NCBI RefSeq assembly: GCF_007004065.1
Contig: NZ_VFSV01000010.1
Location: forward strand, 1-64,000
Reading direction: 5' to 3'
Length of the DNA: 64,000 bases
From: Palleronia caenipelagi
GTDB lineage: Bacteria > Pseudomonadota > Alphaproteobacteria > Rhodobacterales > Rhodobacteraceae
Under the pieces are notes generated by a model. That model was given only the letters and a program-made list of their open reading frames with translations. It was not told where the DNA came from and searched no databases. Below, piece after piece: positions 1 through 45,100 of the stretch (position 1 is its first letter; every line of letters begins with the position of its first letter). Position numbers and translations under genes: made by a program.

Positions 1-237
1 ATCTCGATGGATGGCCGGGGCCGCTGGATCGACAACCGGATGATCGAGCGGCTCTGGCGATCCCTCAAATACGAATGCGTCTACTTGAACGCCTTCGAAA
101 CAGGTTCCGAAGCCCGGGACGGGATCGGTGACTGGATCAGCTACTACAACGAAAGACGCCCGCACTCATCACATGGGATCATGACGCCGGACGAGGCCTA
201 TGACAGGCAATCTCCGGACCTGAAGGTTGCCGCCTGA
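1..237 (+). CDS. IS3-family transposase OrfB, C-terminal part (cut by window edge)
   Basis: The frame is open from base 1 (Ile-Ser precedes the first Met), so the gene begins before the window. What remains is the end of a DDE integrase core: the segment NRMIERLWRSLKYE carries the final catalytic Glu of the DDE triad, and the YYNERRPHSS motif follows, as in OrfB proteins of the IS3 family. The stop at 235-237 lies about 60 bases before the apparent right end of the element. Whether the element is complete cannot be judged from here. Confidence 0.88.
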   Translation: MSMDGRGRWIDNRMIERLWRSLKYECVYLNAFETGSEARDGIGDWISYYNERRPHSSHGIMTPDEAYDRQSPDLKVAA

Positions 238-300
238 AATGAAACCAATGCTATAGCTTAGCACGGCGGCAAACTGGTCGAATTTCAAGGACCACCTCTT
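1..300 (+). mobile_element. IS3-family insertion sequence, right end
   Basis: After the OrfB stop there are about 60 non-coding bases ending in ggaccacctctt. A GGACCACCTC-type terminus is typical of the right inverted repeat of many IS3-family elements. From base 301 the sequence becomes the interior of an IS5-type transposase gene read on the other strand. The boundary at 299-300 is therefore placed both by the IR-like end and by where the IS5 homology starts. The left end is outside the window. Confidence 0.75.
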
Positions 301-1090
301 CAAACGCTGGGCATTTTTACGTGGCGAGATGATGGCTGCGGCTCCCCGAGCGGCAATCACAGTGTGGCATCTGCGCGTGTCATAGGTCCCATCAGCGGTG
401 ACCGTCGCAATCTCTTGGCCGGGCGCGATCTGCTCCAGCAGGTCGTGCAGCATTAGTGCATCACCTGCGTTGCTTGTCGTGACCTCGACCGCCCGGATCT
501 CCAACGGTTCTGCGTCCATTCCCAGATGGAGATTGCACCAAAGGCGCTTTTTGGACCCGCCATGCTTACGGGATCGTTTCCCGAACGGACGGAGCCCCCG
601 CTCCCCTTCACGCTCAGCCTTGATCCCGCGCGGCATTGTCTTCTAACCAGTGGCGGGAAATGCCCTGCCGTCGATCAGCATGTGCAAAGGACCCGTTCCG
701 CTGCGGTAAGGGATGGCGACGCTCAGCGTCTTCTGACGGCGACACAGGGTACTGAAGTCCGGCACTATCCAGTCAAGCTCTGCTGGCCTTAACAGGCTTT
801 GACGAACCCGGTCGTCTGGCGAAGCGGCATACCGAACATGCCCTGAGATCCGCCCGTTCAGGGCGCACATCCGCCCATGGACTGATGTCCGAGCGCTCTT
901 CACCCTTCATCGTGAGACAAACCTGGATTGCCGCATCGCTGAACTCCTGATGACGACCGCGCTTGCCGGTCGCCGGGGCATGTCATTCCATCTCGACATC
1001 AAACCAGATCAGTAGAAAACCGCGCTGCCTTTGCGCAGTGTTGTACGAAGGCCAGTTCCCGGTCTTGTACTTCGGTGTGGACCAACTGCT
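301..1090 (-). pseudogene. IS5-family transposase pseudogene
   Basis: Pieces of one transposase are spread over different frames. The N-terminal piece (about 1074-905) reads YKTGNWPSYN, LLIWFDVEME, a TGA where Trp is expected, then HAPATGKRGR and SDAAIQVCLTMK. A stretch of about 60 extra bases and a frameshift follow. Then come LDWIVPDFSTLCRRQKTL and PYRSGTGPLHMLID (about 775-685), another insertion with a stop, and finally RKHGGSKKR, EIRAVEVTTSNAGDA, VTADGTYDTRRCH and PRKNAQR (about 576-304). The core DDE region is thus disrupted several times and the C-terminus is missing. It cannot encode a working transposase. Confidence 0.85.
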
Positions 1091-17785: not shown

Positions 17786-18811
17786 GTGATCACACCCGAT
17801 CCCACCCTGCGCCCCCAGAGTCTCCCCGAGGATGAGGGGAATGCGCTGCGACCGCAGAGTCTAGATGCCTTTGTAGGTCAGGCCGAGGCACGGGCCAATC
17901 TGCGGGTTTTCATCGAGAGCGCCCGGATGCGCGGGAGGGCCATGGACCACACCCTGTTTCATGGGCCGCCGGGGCTGGGTAAGACGACGCTTTGCCAGAT
18001 CGTCGCGCGCGAATTGGGGGTGAATTTCCGCATGACGTCCGGGCCGGTGCTGGCCAAGGCCGGGGACCTGGCGGCGATCCTGACCAATCTCGAAGCGCGG
18101 GATGTCCTGTTTATCGACGAGATCCACCGCTTGAATCCGGTGGTGGAGGAAATCCTCTATCCCGCCATGGAGGATTTTGAGCTGGATCTGGTGATCGGCG
18201 AGGGTCCAGCGGCGCGGACGGTCCGAATTGAGCTCCAGCCCTTTACGCTGGTGGGGGCGACGACCCGGCTGGGGCTGTTGACGACGCCGCTCCGGGACCG
18301 CTTTGGCATCCCGATCCGGCTGCAATTCTACAATGTGGACGAGCTGACCGCGATCGTCGCGCGGGGCGCGTCAAAGCTGGGCGTCGAGGCCGAACCCGAG
18401 GGCACTCGCGAGATTGCAAAGCGCTCGCGGGGAACGCCCCGGATTGCCGGTCGGCTGCTGCGCCGGGTGGTCGATTTTGCTCTGGTTGAGGGGGATGGGC
18501 GTCTGACACGGGAGCTGGCTGACCGGGCGCTGACCCGCCTGGAAGTGGATGCGCTGGGGCTGGACGGCGCGGACCGGCGGTATCTTCGGCTGATCGCTGA
18601 GCACTATCAGGGCGGTCCCGTGGGGATCGAGACTATGTCGGCAGCGCTGTCCGAGAGCCGTGATGCTCTGGAAGAAGTAATCGAGCCCTACCTGTTGCAG
18701 CAAGGTCTGATCCAGCGGACACCGCGCGGCCGAATGCTGGCGCCGCGGGCCTGGAGCCATCTTGGGATGGCGCCCCCGACGGTGACCGGGGGCGACCTGT
18801 TCGATCTGTAA
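17786..18811 (+). CDS. ruvB: Holliday junction branch migration ATPase RuvB
   Basis: A 341-residue AAA+ motor that drives branch migration with RuvA. Walker A GPPGLGKT is at residues 60-67 and Walker B DEIH at 111-114; sensor [18 protein letters not shown] and the C-terminal winged helix ([12 protein letters not shown]) are present. GTG start at 17786 has ggggagga 7 bases upstream and lies 15 bases after ruvA. The gene ends 7 bases before the convergent unknown gene. Confidence 0.97.
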
Positions 18812-39590: not shown

Positions 39591-41783
39591 ATGATGACCG
39601 AGTTTTTCGCCCCCGATGCCCTTGTGGCCGTACTAACGACCCAGCCGCTTGACCGGACGCTCGACTACCGCGCGCCCGAGGCGGGATGCCGGATGGGCGA
39701 TGTGGTCGAGGTTCCGCTGGGTCCGCGCAAGGTAACGGGCGTAGTCTGGTGCGAGGGGGAGGGGTCCTTCGACCCGGCGCGGATCCGACGGATCATTCGG
39801 GTGTTGGAGGTGCCGCCCTTTCGCCGCGAGTTGCGCGACTTTCTGGAGCGCGCGGCCGATTACACCCTGACCCCGCGCCCCGCCATGCTCCGGCTGGCGA
39901 TGCGGGTCCCCGACCTCGCTGCGCCTCCCGGTTGGCGTAAAGTCTATGTCCGCGGCACCGGCACGCCCGAGCGCCTCACCGATGCCCGTCGCCGGGTGAT
40001 CGAGGTGCTCGACGACCACGGGCCGCTGTCCTTTACCCTGTCAGAACTGGCGGGGCTCGCTGATGTGGGGACTTCCGTCGTTAAGGGGTTGGTCAAGTTC
40101 GGTGCGGTGGACGAGATCGAGGCGCCGCGCGATCAGCCCTATCCGCGCCTTGATCCCGATCTGCCGGGCAAGGCGCTGACCGGTGATCAGGCAGAGGCGG
40201 CAGAGAGCTTGCGTCAGGCTGCGGCGTTGGGGCGCTATGGCACGACGTTGCTGCGGGGCGTGACGGGTTCGGGCAAAACCGAGGTCTATCTGGAGACCGT
40301 CGCCGCTTGTCTCAAGGCCGGACGTCAGGCGCTCGTGCTGTTGCCCGAGATCGCCCTGACTTCAGAGTTTCTCACCCGGGTCGAAGCACGCTTTGGCGCC
40401 CGGCCTGCCGAGTGGCACCACGGCGTCACCCAGACCGAGCGCCGCCGCTGTTGGCGGATGGTGGGCGAGGGGCGCGCCGAACTGGTGGTCGGTGCGCGTT
40501 CGGCTCTGTTCCTGCCCTTTCGCGATCTGGGCCTGATCGTCGTCGATGAGGAGCACGACACTTCCTACAAACAGGAGGATGGTGTCCTCTATTCCGCCCG
40601 CGACATGGCTGTCTTGCGGGCCTCACTGGCGGGGGCGCAGGTGGTACTCGCCTCGGCCACGCCGTCGCTGGAGAGCTGGGCCAATGCCGAGGCGGGCAAG
40701 TATCGCAGCCTCACGCTGACCTCGCGATACGGGGATCGTGCCTTGCCCGAGATGGCCGCCATCGACATGCGCGCCGAGGATCTGCCGGGGCAGGCCTGGG
40801 TCTCGCCAACGCTGGCGCGCGAGGTGGAAACCCGGTTGAACGCCGGAGAGCAATCGCTCCTGTTTCTGAACCGGCGGGGCTACGCCCCGGTGACGATTTG
40901 CCGGGCTTGCGGGGAGATGATCGCCTGCGAACATTGCGACGCCCGTATGGTCGAGCACCGGTTCCTCAAGCGTCTCATGTGCCACCAATGCGGTGAGACC
41001 AGACCCATCCCCGAGGCCTGCCCGTCTTGCGAGATGGAGGGCAAGCTCGCCCCCGTCGGCCCCGGTGTCGAGCGGATGGCCGAGGAGGCCGCGGCGCTGT
41101 GGCCTGATGCGCGGATCGAGGTCCTGTCCTCTGATCTCTACGCCTCCGCTCGCGCGCTCAAGGAACGGATCGAGGCGATTGCGGCGGGGGACGCGGACGT
41201 TATCATCGGCACCCAACTGGTGGCCAAGGGGCACAACTTCCCCCTCCTGACGCTGGTCGGCGTGATCGACGCCGATCTCGGGTTGCAGGGCTCGGACCTG
41301 CGTGCGGCGGAGCGGACCTTTCAGCTCATGCGGCAGGTGGCGGGCCGGGCGGGCCGCGCGGACAAGCCTGGCGCGGCGCTGCTGCAAACCTTTCAGCCAG
41401 AGCACCCGGTGATCAAGTCGATCCTGTCCGGCGACGAAGAGGGATTTTGGGCCGCCGAGGCCGCAGAGCGCCGTCGCGCCGGGATGCCGCCCTTTGGCCG
41501 AATGGCGGGGATCATCCTGTCCTCGCCGGATGTCCAGGCGGTGTTTGACCTCGGCAACCGGCTCGCACAGGCCGATGCGCCGCTCCGCCGGATCGGCGCC
41601 ACGCTTTACGGCCCCGCCCCTGCCCCCATCGCCCGGATTCGGGGTCGCCACCGGGTGCGTCTGCTGATCAAGGCCGACAAGACCGCCCCCCTGCAACCCG
41701 CCATCACGGAATGGCTGTCGCAGGTCCAGATCCGGGGCGATCTGCGCCTCAGCGTCGATATCGACCCGCAAAGCTTCTACTGA
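39591..41783 (+). CDS. priA: Primosomal replication restart helicase PriA
   Basis: A 730-residue 3'-5' helicase that reloads the replisome at stalled forks. The N-terminal 3' DNA-binding domain (TQPLDRTLDYRAP) is followed by Walker A GVTGSGKTEV (about 223-232), the DEEHD box, and two zinc-binding sites in a Cys cluster (CRACG, CEHC, CHQCG, CPSC; about 437-480) inserted in the helicase. The C-terminal helicase motif GTQLVAKGHNFP and QVAGRAGRADKPG are intact. Two adjacent ATGs at 39591/39594 could serve. It is divergent from the DUF484 gene. Confidence 0.96.
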   Translation: MMTEFFAPDALVAVLTTQPLDRTLDYRAPEAGCRMGDVVEVPLGPRKVTGVVWCEGEGSFDPARIRRIIRVLEVPPFRRELRDFLERAADYTLTPRPAMLRLAMRVPDLAAPPGWRKVYVRGTGTPERLTDARRRVIEVLDDHGPLSFTLSELAGLADVGTSVVKGLVKFGAVDEIEAPRDQPYPRLDPDLPGKALTGDQAEAAESLRQAAALGRYGTTLLRGVTGSGKTEVYLETVAACLKAGRQALVLLPEIALTSEFLTRVEARFGARPAEWHHGVTQTERRRCWRMVGEGRAELVVGARSALFLPFRDLGLIVVDEEHDTSYKQEDGVLYSARDMAVLRASLAGAQVVLASATPSLESWANAEAGKYRSLTLTSRYGDRALPEMAAIDMRAEDLPGQAWVSPTLAREVETRLNAGEQSLLFLNRRGYAPVTICRACGEMIACEHCDARMVEHRFLKRLMCHQCGETRPIPEACPSCEMEGKLAPVGPGVERMAEEAAALWPDARIEVLSSDLYASARALKERIEAIAAGDADVIIGTQLVAKGHNFPLLTLVGVIDADLGLQGSDLRAAERTFQLMRQVAGRAGRADKPGAALLQTFQPEHPVIKSILSGDEEGFWAAEAAERRRAGMPPFGRMAGIILSSPDVQAVFDLGNRLAQADAPLRRIGATLYGPAPAPIARIRGRHRVRLLIKADKTAPLQPAITEWLSQVQIRGDLRLSVDIDPQSFY

Positions 41784-41847
41784 GCCCCCCTTGGCTTCTG
41801 CCGCTATGGGTGCACATTGACCTGACACGAACCTCACGGAGACCCCC

Positions 41848-42474
41848 ATGACCCCGCAGGAGATCGAAGCCCTCTTTACCCGCACCGATGGCAGCTACGC
41901 CTTTGCCCGCTGGGGACGGCCCATCGCGCCGGTGGTTTTCGGGGTCGAGGACCAGACGCTCGCGGTTGTCAAAGGCGCGATCGAGGCGCTGTGCCATCTG
42001 GCCGGGCACGACATAGCGGAGACCGACCCGGAGTTGGGCGTCAACCTGATGGTGTTCTTCCTGCGCGAGTGGGACGAGCTGCGCGGGGTGCCTGACCTCG
42101 ACCGCCTGATCCCCGACCTCGCGCCGCTTCTCGACCGGCTCGAAGGGATCGATGCCAACCAGTACCGCATCTTCCGCTTTGACGAGGCCGGGGCGATCCG
42201 CGCGGCGTTCGTGTTCGTGCGGATGGATGCGGAGATGTCGAAGGTTCCCGCCGAGACCATCGCGCTGGCCCAAGCCGCCCAGACCATGCTGCTCTGGTCG
42301 GATCAGGCCTTCACCGACCGTTCCACCCTCGCCCAGACCCCCTCCGGCGCCGTGGTCCTCCGCCCTGACATCGGAGCCCTCATCCGCGCCGCCTACGACC
42401 CCGTCCTGCCTCCCAGCGCCCACGACCCCAGCCACGCGCTGAGACTGTCAGCACGTGTGGGGGCAGCGTTGTGA
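41848..42474 (+). CDS. Uncharacterised 208-residue protein, upstream of the tol-pal operon
   Basis: No named family recognised. The protein is soluble and acidic, with an alpha-beta pattern (TDPELGVNLMVFFLREWDEL, IFRFDEAGAIRAAFVFVRMD) and a Pro-rich C-terminus. ATG at 41848 has cggagaccccc upstream. It lies 64 bases after priA in the same direction. Its stop overlaps the GTG start of the next gene (GTGA), suggesting coupled translation. Base composition is like the neighbours, so it is likely native. I believe similar proteins sit near priA in other Rhodobacteraceae, but this is from memory only. Confidence 0.8.
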   Translation: MTPQEIEALFTRTDGSYAFARWGRPIAPVVFGVEDQTLAVVKGAIEALCHLAGHDIAETDPELGVNLMVFFLREWDELRGVPDLDRLIPDLAPLLDRLEGIDANQYRIFRFDEAGAIRAAFVFVRMDAEMSKVPAETIALAQAAQTMLLWSDQAFTDRSTLAQTPSGAVVLRPDIGALIRAAYDPVLPPSAHDPSHALRLSARVGAAL

Positions 42475-43880
42475 AACGGAGGCTGGCGGAGTTCGGGCAG
42501 CTGGATGCGGTGCAGCAACGGCTGTTGGACGAGATCGGTTCCGGGAAAGTGATCTGCTTTGGCAAAGCAAAGCCCGGGCAGCTTTTTACTGGAACAGCGC
42601 GTCCCGCACCCGACGATGCCCACATCCCCACCGTTTCGGCCGATTTCTTGCGCTATGTGATCCTCGGCGGCTGCCCGGCCCTGACGGCGCGAGGCGTCAC
42701 AGTGCCGGCGAAGGGAGTGCAGGTAGCGGGGCTCTGGATCACCGGTGTGCTGGATATGCAGACGGAGCAAATCACCCGCGATATTGCATTATTGGATTGC
42801 TACATAGAAAGACCGCCAGTTTTCTACTCAGCGTCCTTGCGGAGTCTCTTCCTCAGTGGATCAGAGCTCCCAGGTTTCGAGGGCGATCGTATGACTGCAA
42901 GCGGCGGAGTGTTCTTCCGAGATATGAAAATCAGTAGGGAAATTTGCCTTCCCGGGGCAAGAATAGCTGGAAATTTCGAGTTAACCGATTGTGCCTTCGA
43001 GGCGGGCCGCGGTGATGGCATAGACTTAACAAAAGCGGATATTGCAGGCATTTTTTTCTTTCAAGGTGTGAAGCAGTTAACTGGCGCCGTCCGCATGGGA
43101 GCCGCGAGGATTTCGTCGCTAGTTGATGATCACGACAGCTGGCCGTCAGGCAAAGTCTATCTTAATGGCTTGACCTATGATGCCTTTGGCGGCGACGCCG
43201 CGACCGATGGCACGGCCCGGATCGCCTGGCTGGACCGGCAGCGTCATGACGATGTGAACGAAGACTTCCGTCCCCAGCCTTGGGAACAGTGTGCGAAAGT
43301 TCTGCGCGAGATGGGCCATGGCGAGGCGGCCCGCGCGGTTCTGATTGCGAAGGAGGAACGACAGCGGCGCGCTCAGCGGATGCGCCTGAAAAAGGCAGGT
43401 CAGCCGGCATTTGCTACGATCCGGGCCGTTTGGGACCACATCCTCTGGGCCACGACCGCCTATGGCCATCAACCCTTTCGCGCCCTCTGGTCGATGGTGG
43501 TCCTTTTCGTGTTCGGAGCAATGGTGTTTCACCACGCGGCCCAGATAGGGTCCATGGCACCGACCTCTCCTGAGATGGTGATGCTTGACGCCAAATGGAT
43601 CGGCTGCGAGAGCGGTCCCGCTTACGAAGCACTGGACTGCTTCAAAAGGAACGCACCGGACTTTCCTCGGTTCAACTCCTACGTTTTCTCGCTCGACACG
43701 CTCCTGCCGGTGGTCTCTTTCGGCATGGAAGGCTATTGGCTCCCCTCCGAAGCGCGAGGTACTCGATTTGCGACCTTCGCCGCGGGATACCTCTGGTTCC
43801 ACATCGCGGCGGGATGGGTCCTCTCGCTCCTCCTTGTCGCCGGGCTCTCGGGCCTCATCAGAACGGACAACACCAAATGA
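42471..43880 (+). CDS. Beta-helix-like membrane protein of unknown function
   Basis: A 469-residue protein. Residues about 80-240 form irregular repeats of roughly 20 residues with patterns such as GARIAGNFEL and ADIAGIFFF, suggesting a right-handed beta-helix or pentapeptide-like fold. A conserved linker follows (QPWEQCAKVLREMGHGEAA, then IAKEERQR), then a membrane helix (about 345-367), a loop with SLDTLLPVVSFG, and a final helix pair region (about 435-463). Similar proteins with the linker and the SLDTLLPVV motif occur in actinobacteria and proteobacteria and are often loosely called membrane-associated oxidoreductase; I see no oxidoreductase motif. GTG start overlaps the previous stop; its own stop overlaps ybgC (ATGA). 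The middle (about 42780-43080) is visibly AT-richer. Confidence 0.82.
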   Translation: MKRRLAEFGQLDAVQQRLLDEIGSGKVICFGKAKPGQLFTGTARPAPDDAHIPTVSADFLRYVILGGCPALTARGVTVPAKGVQVAGLWITGVLDMQTEQITRDIALLDCYIERPPVFYSASLRSLFLSGSELPGFEGDRMTASGGVFFRDMKISREICLPGARIAGNFELTDCAFEAGRGDGIDLTKADIAGIFFFQGVKQLTGAVRMGAARISSLVDDHDSWPSGKVYLNGLTYDAFGGDAATDGTARIAWLDRQRHDDVNEDFRPQPWEQCAKVLREMGHGEAARAVLIAKEERQRRAQRMRLKKAGQPAFATIRAVWDHILWATTAYGHQPFRALWSMVVLFVFGAMVFHHAAQIGSMAPTSPEMVMLDAKWIGCESGPAYEALDCFKRNAPDFPRFNSYVFSLDTLLPVVSFGMEGYWLPSEARGTRFATFAAGYLWFHIAAGWVLSLLLVAGLSGLIRTDNTK

Positions 43881-44263
43881 CGCATCGCTTTGACGTTACG
43901 GTTTACTACGAAGACACGGATATGGGCGGGATTGTGTATCACGCCAATTATCTGAAATTCATCGAGCGGGCGCGGTCGGACTGGGTGCGCGGGCTGGGGG
44001 TGGACCAGAATATGCTGCGGGACGGCGGCCTTGTCTTTGCCGTGCGGCGGGTGGAAGCGGATTTCCTCGGACCGGCGCGGCTTGATGACCGGCTGGAGGT
44101 GGAGACCGAGGTGCTTTCGGCGACCGGCGCGCGGATCGAACTGGGGCAGAAGATCCGCTCGGGGGGGAAGACCCTGTTCCGGGCCAAGGTGCAGCTGGTG
44201 GCCATGGATCCGGCGGGTGGGGTGCGGCGTCTGCCTGCGGAGCTGCGCGCGCGGATCGCCTGA
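43877..44263 (+). CDS. ybgC: Tol-Pal associated acyl-CoA thioesterase YbgC
   Basis: A 128-residue hotdog-fold thioesterase. The catalytic segment YYEDTDMGGIVYHANYLKF with the key Asp near residue 14 and YHANY are canonical. YbgC acts on acyl-CoA or acyl-ACP at the inner membrane and is normally the first gene of the tol-pal operon. Here the ATG at 43877 overlaps the stop of the beta-helix membrane gene, so translation is probably coupled to it; the open frame continues upstream inside that gene, but the family N-terminus fixes the start. Confidence 0.94.
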   Translation: MTHRFDVTVYYEDTDMGGIVYHANYLKFIERARSDWVRGLGVDQNMLRDGGLVFAVRRVEADFLGPARLDDRLEVETEVLSATGARIELGQKIRSGGKTLFRAKVQLVAMDPAGGVRRLPAELRARIA

Positions 44264-44404
44264 GCGGCTTTCCGCCCGTCCGAAGGCCGACGGGACGGAA
44301 CTTCACCGCTTTGTGCGGCGCAACTTGCTTACGCAGGGGCCGCGCATCATGTATGCGTCGGAAAAGCGCACCCGCAGAGGTGCCGGGCAACGAAGAGCAG
44401 GCAG

Positions 44405-45100
44405 ATGGAAACGGACACCCTTGCGGCGGCCTCGCAAATCGACTTCTCCATGATCGGGCTGTTCGCCCGCGCGACCCTGACGGTCAAGCTGGTGATGATC
44501 CTGCTTATCGCCGCGTCGATCTGGTCCTGGGCAATCATTTTTCGCAAGCATGTCAGCTACCGCCTCGCCCGGCGCGAGGCGGCGCGGTTCGACGAAGCTT
44601 TCTGGTCCGGCGAGCCGCTGGATGACCTGTATCGCCAGGTCGGACCCGAGCCCAAGGGTCGCGCCGCCGGGATTTTCGCTGCCGGCATGGCCGAGTGGCA
44701 GCGCAGTCATCGCACCGGCGGCGACCTGATCCCCGGCGCTCAGGCGCGGATCGAGCGGAGCATGGACGTGGCGATTGCCCGTGAGGCTGACGATCTGGAG
44801 CGCGGACTGCCGGTGCTGGCGACGATTGGCTCGACGGCGCCGTTCGTGGGGCTGTTCGGGACCGTCTGGGGCATCATGCACGCCTTTATCGGTATTGCCG
44901 AGCAGCAGAACACCAATCTCGCCGTTGTCGCTCCGGGCATCGCCGAGGCACTGCTGGCGACGGGGCTGGGCCTGCTGGCTGCGATCCCGGCGGTGGTATT
45001 CTACAACAAGCTCTCAGCCGATCAGGGGCGGATTGTCGGCGGCTACGAGGTCTTTGCCGACGAGTTTTCCACCCTCCTGTCGCGCCAGCTGGACGACTGA
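44405..45100 (+). CDS. tolQ: Tol-Pal system proton-channel subunit TolQ
   Basis: A 231-residue inner-membrane protein related to ExbB/MotA. First helix about 17-40, then a cytoplasmic domain, then two helices around LATIGSTAPFVGLFGTVWGIMHAF and AEALLATGLGLLAAIPAVVFYN. With TolR it forms the proton-driven motor that energises TolA during envelope constriction. Followed after 1 base by tolR. Confidence 0.96.
   Translation: METDTLAAASQIDFSMIGLFARATLTVKLVMILLIAASIWSWAIIFRKHVSYRLARREAARFDEAFWSGEPLDDLYRQVGPEPKGRAAGIFAAGMAEWQRSHRTGGDLIPGAQARIERSMDVAIAREADDLERGLPVLATIGSTAPFVGLFGTVWGIMHAFIGIAEQQNTNLAVVAPGIAEALLATGLGLLAAIPAVVFYNKLSADQGRIVGGYEVFADEFSTLLSRQLDD

What the first reader, a model, noticed from the sequence alone, without database searches (positions are those of the whole stretch)
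41848..43880. Two uncharacterised genes coupled to the head of the tol-pal operon
Between priA and ybgC lie a soluble 208-aa protein and a 469-aa beta-helix/membrane protein. They overlap by GTGA, and the second overlaps ybgC by ATGA, so the pair is likely translated with ybgC and transcribed with tolQRAB-pal. The membrane protein has a repeat domain, a conserved WEQ-GHGEAARAVLIAK linker, and helices around a SLDTLLPVV loop. That layout, helix, re-entrant-like loop, helix, could be a small channel or sensor with an attached beta-helix. A role in envelope constriction or stress is possible but unproven. This is the best candidate here for an undescribed system.
Basis: partly seen in the sequence, partly recalled or inferred. 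Interest (0 to 1): 0.65.

Follow-up and report, generated by a model that had tools for sequence, protein, structure and literature searches.

The report
HalA-like membrane protein beside tol-pal genes
One of two unnamed genes in front of the Tol-Pal cell-envelope genes encodes an inner-membrane protein that by predicted shape resembles HalA, the ion channel of a bacterial anti-phage system, and in a number of related bacteria it sits in this same place, whereas its neighbour is a separate, widespread, apparently inactive protease-shaped protein.

Summary
In detail: p208 (41848-42474), p469 (42471-43880) and ybgC (43877-44263) overlap by GTGA and ATGA. The two genes are not a conserved pair. 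p208 is found in 247 of 295 family genomes, any p469 relative in 58 of 295, and each occurs without the other.

p208 is a divergent relative of DUF2927 (below Pfam's cut-off). Its model has a metzincin-like fold without the zinc motif.

p469 belongs to a mainly alphaproteobacterial family: cytoplasmic pentapeptide-type beta-solenoid, helical linker, two transmembrane helices, and a loop with an almost invariant D409. Its model (pLDDT 90.8) has HalA, the Hailong channel, as best PDB match in both aligners. No sequence link to HalA or K+ channels was found, so channel function is inferred from fold alone.

The tol-pal link recurs. Of the 80 nearest named relatives, 28 lie beside ruvB, p208 or ybgC; 21 distinct copies abut ybgC, 15 by a 4-base overlap. 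But most relatives lie elsewhere, the gene is patchy, and it is frameshifted in the nearest relative. I read it as an old, dispensable passenger of this operon, probably a gated channel.

The parts
39591..41783 (+). priA, upstream neighbour (in most relatives looked at ruvB stands upstream of p208 instead)
   Evidence: Pfam PriA domains; ruvB upstream on the same strand within 4 kb in 33 of 40 p208 regions; the window's own ruvB is at 17792-18769
41848..42474 (+). p208: soluble DUF2927-like protein, metzincin-like fold without the zinc motif
   Evidence: PF11150 E 6.1e-5, 23.6 bits, below cut-off 26.2; model pLDDT 89.1, though the five models range from 89.1 to 66.4; best VIA match MMP-7 Z 9.8, rmsd 3.2, 137 aligned; HExxH in 0 of 19 sequences; 247 of 295 genomes
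42471..43880 (+). p469: pentapeptide-type beta-solenoid plus two-TM inner-membrane protein, HalA-like by fold
   Evidence: model pLDDT 90.8, pTM 0.83; best PDB match 9nyi_A HalA in Foldseek and VIA; family tree and placement
42630..43190 (+). beta-solenoid domain of p469 (residues ~54-240); G+C falls to 0.50 at 42801-43100
   Evidence: strands in the model; composition; relatives match Pentapeptide_3, 42 of 56 at E up to 1
43473..43544 (+). TM1 of p469 (residues 335-358)
   Evidence: helix in the model; hydropathy peak 1.83
43677..43715 (+). short helix (403-411) and following residues, SLDTLLPVV = 407-415; pore-helix candidate; D409 and P413 near-invariant
   Evidence: D409 in 97 of 98, P413 in 96 of 98 rows
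43764..43847 (+). TM2 of p469 (residues 432-459)
   Evidence: helix in the model; hydropathy peak 2.21
43877..44263 (+). ybgC, tol-pal-associated thioesterase
   Evidence: TIGR02799 above cut-off
44405..45100 (+). tolQ, 141 bp after ybgC
   Evidence: TIGR02796 272.4 bits against 221; spacing

Best explanation
p469 is an inner-membrane protein of a broad, mainly alphaproteobacterial family. A cytoplasmic beta-solenoid is joined through a helical linker to TM1, then an extracytoplasmic loop that folds back as a short helix with an almost invariant Asp, then TM2. I think it most likely assembles into an oligomeric gated ion channel, as HalA of the Hailong system does: the solenoid crown binds an unknown cytoplasmic ligand and opens or shuts a pore lined by the D409 loop and TM2. 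It is made from the ybgC message by translational coupling. It is an old resident of the ruvB-ybgC interval in Rhodobacterales, kept in few lineages, and not a core Tol-Pal part. p208 is a separate cytoplasmic pseudo-metzincin (an inactive protease fold), perhaps a binding or adaptor protein. Shown by computation: frames, overlaps, family, placement, predicted fold. Inferred: topology (charge bias), oligomer, pore, gating, co-transcription.
For: Model pLDDT 90.8, pTM 0.83 from 56 sequences. HalA (9nyi_A) ranks first in Foldseek (E 1.1e-3, prob 1.00; next hit E 3.2e-2) and in VIA (Z 14.1, rmsd 4.8, 282 aligned, model 95..465, so both domains; the best pentapeptide protein has Z 12.9 with 193 aligned). 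Four K+/TRP channels are among Foldseek's first 50 rows, at E 1.3-4.9 only. HalA is called an ion channel in PMC13275509 (passages). D409 is in 97 of 98 rows, P413 in 96, W423 in 98; the cysteine pair C379/C390 is in 28 of 28 rows with this placement. Before TM1 there are 10 K/R against 4 D/E, and in the loop 5 against 9. Placement: 28 of 80 named relatives lie beside ruvB, p208 or ybgC; 21 distinct copies abut ybgC, 15 with a 4-base overlap; the placement label needs 4 changes on the tree against 24.7 for shuffles, 0 of 500 as low.
Against: There is no detectable sequence relation to HalA: profiles A3 and A6 against PDB chains at E up to 10 did not list it. There is none to Ion_trans_2: no Pfam match at E up to 1, and hhalign probability 1.3%; no TTxG[YF]GD filter is present. 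No Foldseek match reaches E 0.001, and the TM-score to HalA is low (0.27/0.34). A beta-solenoid alone matches many proteins at Z 10-13, and VIA can also span a solenoid and a TM bundle spuriously (7t9n_R, Z 9.8, rmsd 8.6). No HalB-like nucleotidyltransferase stands next to it. Most relatives lie away from tol-pal: 24 of 30 fetched family loci, 52 of 80 named ones. The window copy has a long branch (1.09), departs from the consensus at several conserved sites, is frameshifted in Palleronia salina and is missing from 11 of 14 genomes of the genus; one of the 3 hits there is a distant 32% relative at an unexamined place.
Confidence: 0.42

Rival explanations
1. p469 is a membrane-anchored beta-solenoid scaffold: two TM helices tether a binding platform to the inner membrane, with no pore.
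For: The solenoid by itself matches many soluble pentapeptide proteins (Z about 10-13). The TM part has no sequence link to channels. Protein length varies among relatives: 469 aa here, up to 673 aa in L076.
Against: Conservation is highest from the end of the solenoid on: the 12 invariant columns of A3 all lie at residue 224 or later. A near-invariant Asp in the inter-TM loop is hard to explain for a plain tether. HalA matches across both domains.
Confidence: 0.3
2. p469 is a selfish or neutral passenger: the ruvB-ybgC interval in Rhodobacterales collects accessory genes, and co-location with tol-pal has no functional meaning. (This concerns position and can hold together with the channel or the tether reading.)
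For: The interval holds very different genes in different genomes: Crp-like, GH10-like, vWA/DUF1194-like, ThpR-like, GNAT-like, CAP-like and nucleotidase-like proteins (names by inspection). p469 sits at different points in it, is often missing, and most relatives lie elsewhere. 3 of the 32 placed copies are frameshifted: L089, L123, L124.
Against: Co-directional in all 32 placed copies, with a 4-base overlap to ybgC in 15 of 21 adjacent ones across deep divergence. The placement is clustered on the tree, not random.
Confidence: 0.35
3. p469 is an anti-phage effector of the Hailong kind that has lost or distanced its nucleotidyltransferase.
For: HalA is the best structural match. Presence is patchy, and broken copies occur.
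Against: No PADLOC match (that library is of 2023, before Hailong was published). No nucleotidyltransferase at E up to 1e-5 among the 10 neighbour proteins scanned, nor beside it in the window. The immediate neighbours read look like transport or metabolic genes; wider neighbourhoods were not searched for defence genes. The position is clustered on the tree.
Confidence: 0.1
4. p208 and p469 form one two-protein envelope system with Tol-Pal.
For: The 4-base overlap of p208 and p469 recurs in 7 of the named loci: L061, L066, L070, L073, L092, L124, L128.
Against: p208 is in 247 of 295 genomes, any p469 relative in 58 of 295. p469 occurs without p208 (L078) or before it (L065, L074, L075).
Confidence: 0.07

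Closest known systems
HalA of the Hailong anti-phage system (PDB 9nyi)
   Same: Best PDB match of the p469 model in both aligners, spanning the solenoid and the TM part.
   Different: No sequence match, no HalB-like partner seen next to it, gene in an envelope/repair locus. DNA binding and defence are untested.
Pentapeptide repeat proteins (PF13576; Qnr, MfpA, HetL)
   Same: The beta-solenoid domain matches Qnr, MfpA and HetL at Z 11-13; 42 of 56 relatives match Pentapeptide_3 at E up to 1.
   Different: The window protein itself has no Pfam match at E up to 1. It has an added linker and a two-TM domain.
Two-TM K+ channel pore (Ion_trans_2, PF07885)
   Same: Order of parts only: helix, short inter-TM helix and loop, helix.
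   Different: No Pfam match, hhalign probability 1.3%, no TTxG[YF]GD filter, long extracytoplasmic insert with a Cys pair.
DUF2927 (PF11150) and metzincin/MMP fold, for p208
   Same: DUF2927 E 6.1e-5 over 171 residues. All 50 VIA rows shown are matrix metalloproteinases or MMP-like karilysin, Z 8.6-9.8.
   Different: Below the DUF2927 cut-off; HExxH absent in 19 of 19.
Tol-Pal operon (ybgC-tolQRAB-pal)
   Same: Same strand, overlapping ybgC.
   Different: p469 is absent from most family genomes searched, so it is not a core component.

Membership tests
Hailong HalA | Solenoid-plus-channel fold of HalA | tested here: met
   9nyi_A rank 1 in Foldseek (E 1.1e-3, TM 0.27/0.34) and VIA (Z 14.1, rmsd 4.8, 282 aligned). 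Resemblance of a predicted model, not proof of kinship.
Hailong HalA | Sequence relation to HalA | tested here: inconclusive
   Profiles A3 and A6 against PDB chain sequences at E up to 10 did not list HalA; I never held the HalA sequence itself.
Hailong HalA | Neighbouring HalB nucleotidyltransferase | tested here: not met
   Not among the window neighbours scanned, nor among 10 neighbour proteins of relatives; only those were scanned.
Hailong HalA | Binds oligo-dA; defends against phage | not testable with these tools
   Needs bench work.
Pentapeptide repeat (PF13576) | Profile match and right-handed beta-solenoid | tested here: inconclusive
   Window protein: no Pfam match. Relatives: 42 of 56 at E up to 1. 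Model matches pentapeptide structures up to Z 12.9.
Ion_trans_2 K+ channel pore (PF07885) | Profile match with selectivity filter | tested here: not met
   Not listed for any of 56 members at E up to 1; hhalign of TM alignments A6 against A5 probability 1.3%; the 25 channel sequences of A5 share TTxG[YF]GD-type filters.
Ion channel by function | Conducts ions | not testable with these tools
   Inferred from the HalA-like fold only.
DUF2927 (PF11150), p208 | Score above gathering cut-off | tested here: not met
   23.6 against 26.2 bits; 4 of 19 relatives match at E up to 0.01. Related in part, but not filed as a member.
Metzincin peptidase, p208 | Metzincin-like fold | tested here: met
   MMP-7 Z 9.8, rmsd 3.2, 137 aligned, a little above the usual chance level of 7-8; Foldseek's best E is only 3.1e-2.
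Metzincin peptidase, p208 | HExxH zinc motif | tested here: not met
   0 of 19 sequences.
Tol-Pal core component, p469 | Present wherever tol-pal is present | tested here: not met
   Any relative in 58 of 295 family genomes, while 24 of the 25 regions with p208 and ybgC lack it (L178 has it).
YbgC (TIGR02799), downstream gene | Score above cut-off | tested here: met
   149.8 against 141.35 bits.

The most novel reading that the evidence does not exclude
The family is a new, widespread branch of solenoid-gated ion channels with the HalA plan but outside phage defence. In Rhodobacterales one branch has been translationally coupled to the Tol-Pal operon since early in the order, so that a cytoplasmic signal sensed by the solenoid sets an ion leak in step with Tol-Pal synthesis. 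Hailong's channel would then be one defence-adapted member of a larger class of solenoid-gated channels.
Probability: 0.17. Interest if true: 0.72.

Novelty: new variant of a known kind. Interest (0 to 1): 0.46.

Why it matters
No profile in Pfam, NCBIfam or PADLOC matches this protein at E up to 1; the solenoid of most relatives matches only Pentapeptide_3, and their TM part has no consistent Pfam match. If the fold match to HalA holds, the DNA-blocked defence channel has chromosomal cousins beside ordinary genes of Rhodobacterales and Rhizobiales, which gives a test of where such channels came from and what else a solenoid crown can sense. It also gives Tol-Pal workers a candidate accessory protein coupled to ybgC. 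If it is only a tether or a passenger, it still explains a recurrent unnamed gene at this locus.

Tried and rejected
Rejected: p208 and p469 as an obligate pair. p469 as a K+ channel by sequence. p208 as an active metalloprotease. p469 as a member of a defence system catalogued in PADLOC 2023. No viral relative was seen either: nothing in BFVD at E up to 0.001.

Led nowhere: the single-sequence scan of genome contigs found no relative; an alignment query then worked. An all-against-all clustering of ORFs was swamped by shadow frames of high-G+C DNA, so neighbours were read locus by locus for 30 of the 52 loci elsewhere. Sequence profiles of p469, of its TM part and of p208 against PDB chains gave only chance-level or repeat-type hits. 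VIA is not a search, so absences there mean nothing. Paper searches: no held paper has the word DUF2927; the Hailong paper is not held, so HalA is described from two citing papers (passages only) and from recall; other searches (listings only) gave nothing on this family.

A3 uses 55 of the 80 loci plus the window. 'Elsewhere' means that none of ruvB, p208, ybgC, tolQ or priA was found in the DNA held, which is short for some contigs. Of the 28 loci, four (L065, L083, L084, L097) show no ybgC in the DNA held. The 40 p208 regions were not random: 12 were taken because their short loci had shown no ybgC, 2 for a long gap, the rest by hand from the list. Gene starts are misplaced for some long p469 copies (e.g. 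L072, L076, L092, L128), so the p208-p469 gaps were recounted.

Full report
Observation. The flanking genes are priA and ybgC; tolQ follows 141 bp after ybgC, and tolQ, tolR, tolB and pal are confirmed by NCBIfam. No promoter-like site and no terminators above chance were found in 41500-44700; that scan cannot exclude other promoter types.

p208. It is found in 247 of 295 genomes of the family. In 40 larger regions, 12 of them chosen because short loci had shown no ybgC, ruvB lies upstream on the same strand within 4 kb in 33, and ybgC lies downstream on the same strand within 3.1 kb in 25; one of the 40 has p469. So p208 is an old gene of the ruv / tol-pal neighbourhood that mostly lacks p469. 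In the window, ruvB is 23 kb away at 17792-18769 and priA stands next to p208. By sequence p208 is a sub-threshold relative of DUF2927 (4 of 19 relatives match at E up to 0.01). Its model (best pLDDT 89.1, the five models 89.1 to 66.4) resembles matrix metalloproteinases: best Z 9.8, rmsd 3.2, 137 aligned, and all 50 rows shown are MMPs or MMP-like karilysin, while Foldseek E-values are only 3.1e-2 and up. The HExxH motif is absent in all 19 sequences looked at. I read it as an inactive metzincin fold; what it binds is unknown.

p469 family. Nothing in Pfam, NCBIfam or PADLOC matches the window protein at E up to 1. Of 56 members scanned, 42 match Pentapeptide_3 at E up to 1. Two broad types can be told apart. 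Type A, with the window, has a Cys pair in the loop (28 of 28 rows beside ruv/tol; 47 and 46 of 48 other type A rows for the two positions) and typically a GWxLSLLAVAGFSG second TM. Type B typically has GWIVTALGAAAITG and no Cys pair, except for L007, which fits neither type well. Both keep D409 (97 of 98), P413 (96 of 98) and W423 (98 of 98).

Structure. The AlphaFold2 model from 56 sequences has pLDDT 90.8 and pTM 0.83: beta-solenoid about 54-240, linker helices 247-333, TM1 335-358, an insert with a short helix 403-411 that overlaps the SLDTLLPVV stretch (407-415), TM2 432-459. Charges before TM1 are 10 K/R to 4 D/E, and in the loop 5 to 9, which favours a cytoplasmic solenoid and an extracytoplasmic loop. 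Against the PDB, Foldseek ranks HalA (9nyi_A) first at E 1.1e-3, with no match at or below 0.001, and VIA ranks it first at Z 14.1 over model residues 95-465. Pentapeptide proteins come next at Z up to 12.9. Cautions: TM-scores are low (0.27/0.34), solenoids match many proteins, and one unrelated receptor (7t9n_R) also spans both parts, at rmsd 8.6. Profiles found no sequence link to HalA or to Ion_trans_2. The Hailong paper itself is not held. That HalA is an ion channel blocked by poly-dA is taken from passages of PMC13275509, and that oligodeoxyadenylate negatively regulates Hailong from PMC12265719.

Placement. Of the 80 named loci, 28 lie beside ruvB, p208 or ybgC; four of these show no ybgC in the DNA held. 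21 of these abut ybgC: 15 with a -4 overlap and 6 with a gap of 2-61 bases. The other 11 stand after ruvB, before p208, 3 kb before ybgC, or at a contig end. In L065, L075 and L084 the overlap is with ruvB instead. On a quick tree of 98 rows the placement label needs 4 changes against a shuffled mean of 24.7 (0 of 500 as low); support along the backbone is mixed and the root is not inferred. So the position looks inherited and old. Against this, most relatives lie elsewhere: 24 of 30 family loci fetched show no p208, ybgC, tolQ, tolR or priA within 1.5 kb, and 52 of the 80 named loci, mostly Rhizobiales, show none of ruvB, p208, ybgC, tolQ or priA. Those scanned stand beside transporters (CitMHS, AbgT, sulfate), DUF1269/patatin genes or a phosphorylase. 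The interval itself holds very varied genes. Within the genus only 3 of 14 genomes give a match: the window; one whose match has the same split layout and position as Palleronia salina L124 and is, I judge, that genome, with the gene frameshifted; and a distant 32% relative at a place not examined. Three of the 32 placed copies are frameshifted (L089, L123, L124); assembly error cannot be excluded.

Judgement. p469 is best read as a HalA-like solenoid plus two-TM protein, probably a gated channel (0.42), riding with ybgC by translational coupling but dispensable. The tether and passenger readings remain strong rivals; the passenger reading concerns position and can hold together with either. 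A defence role is possible but has no genomic support in what was searched here.

Noticed in passing
17792-18769 and 39591-42474: The window's ruvB is 23 kb from p208, with priA now next to p208, whereas ruvB lies close upstream of p208 in 33 of 40 regions looked at: a rearrangement in this lineage.
   Followed up: partly
L218 2011-2730 and 2364-3830 (minus strand), G000:C68: A second solenoid plus TM paralogue in the same genome, with a signal-peptide-like N terminus and a FFYSLENAMPLIALSQ loop, split over two frames. If real, its solenoid would be exported, i.e. the opposite topology.
   Followed up: partly
42801-43100: G+C drops to 0.50 inside the solenoid of p469, against about 0.57-0.71 in the windows around it, which may mean recombination or relaxed selection.
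   Followed up: no
ruvB-ybgC interval in L005, L032, L047, L062, L066, L075, L077, L085, L092, L095, L104, L138: The interval carries very varied genes (ThpR-like, GNAT-like, CAP-like, LysM/solute-binding pairs, 5'-nucleotidase-like, GH10-like, DUF1194-like, Crp-like and unnamed ones; names by inspection), so it looks like a hotspot for gene gain.
   Followed up: partly
L087, L101, L117, L129 and related Rhizobiales loci (L069, L094, L140): In Rhizobiales, relatives recur beside a DUF1269 gene and/or a patatin-like phospholipase gene, or next to a CitMHS-type permease (by inspection; for one example of each).
   Followed up: partly
L080, L098: Type B relatives beside a PNP_UDP_1 phosphorylase (MTAP-like) gene and, in L098, an apt-like gene (L098 and apt by inspection).
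   Followed up: no
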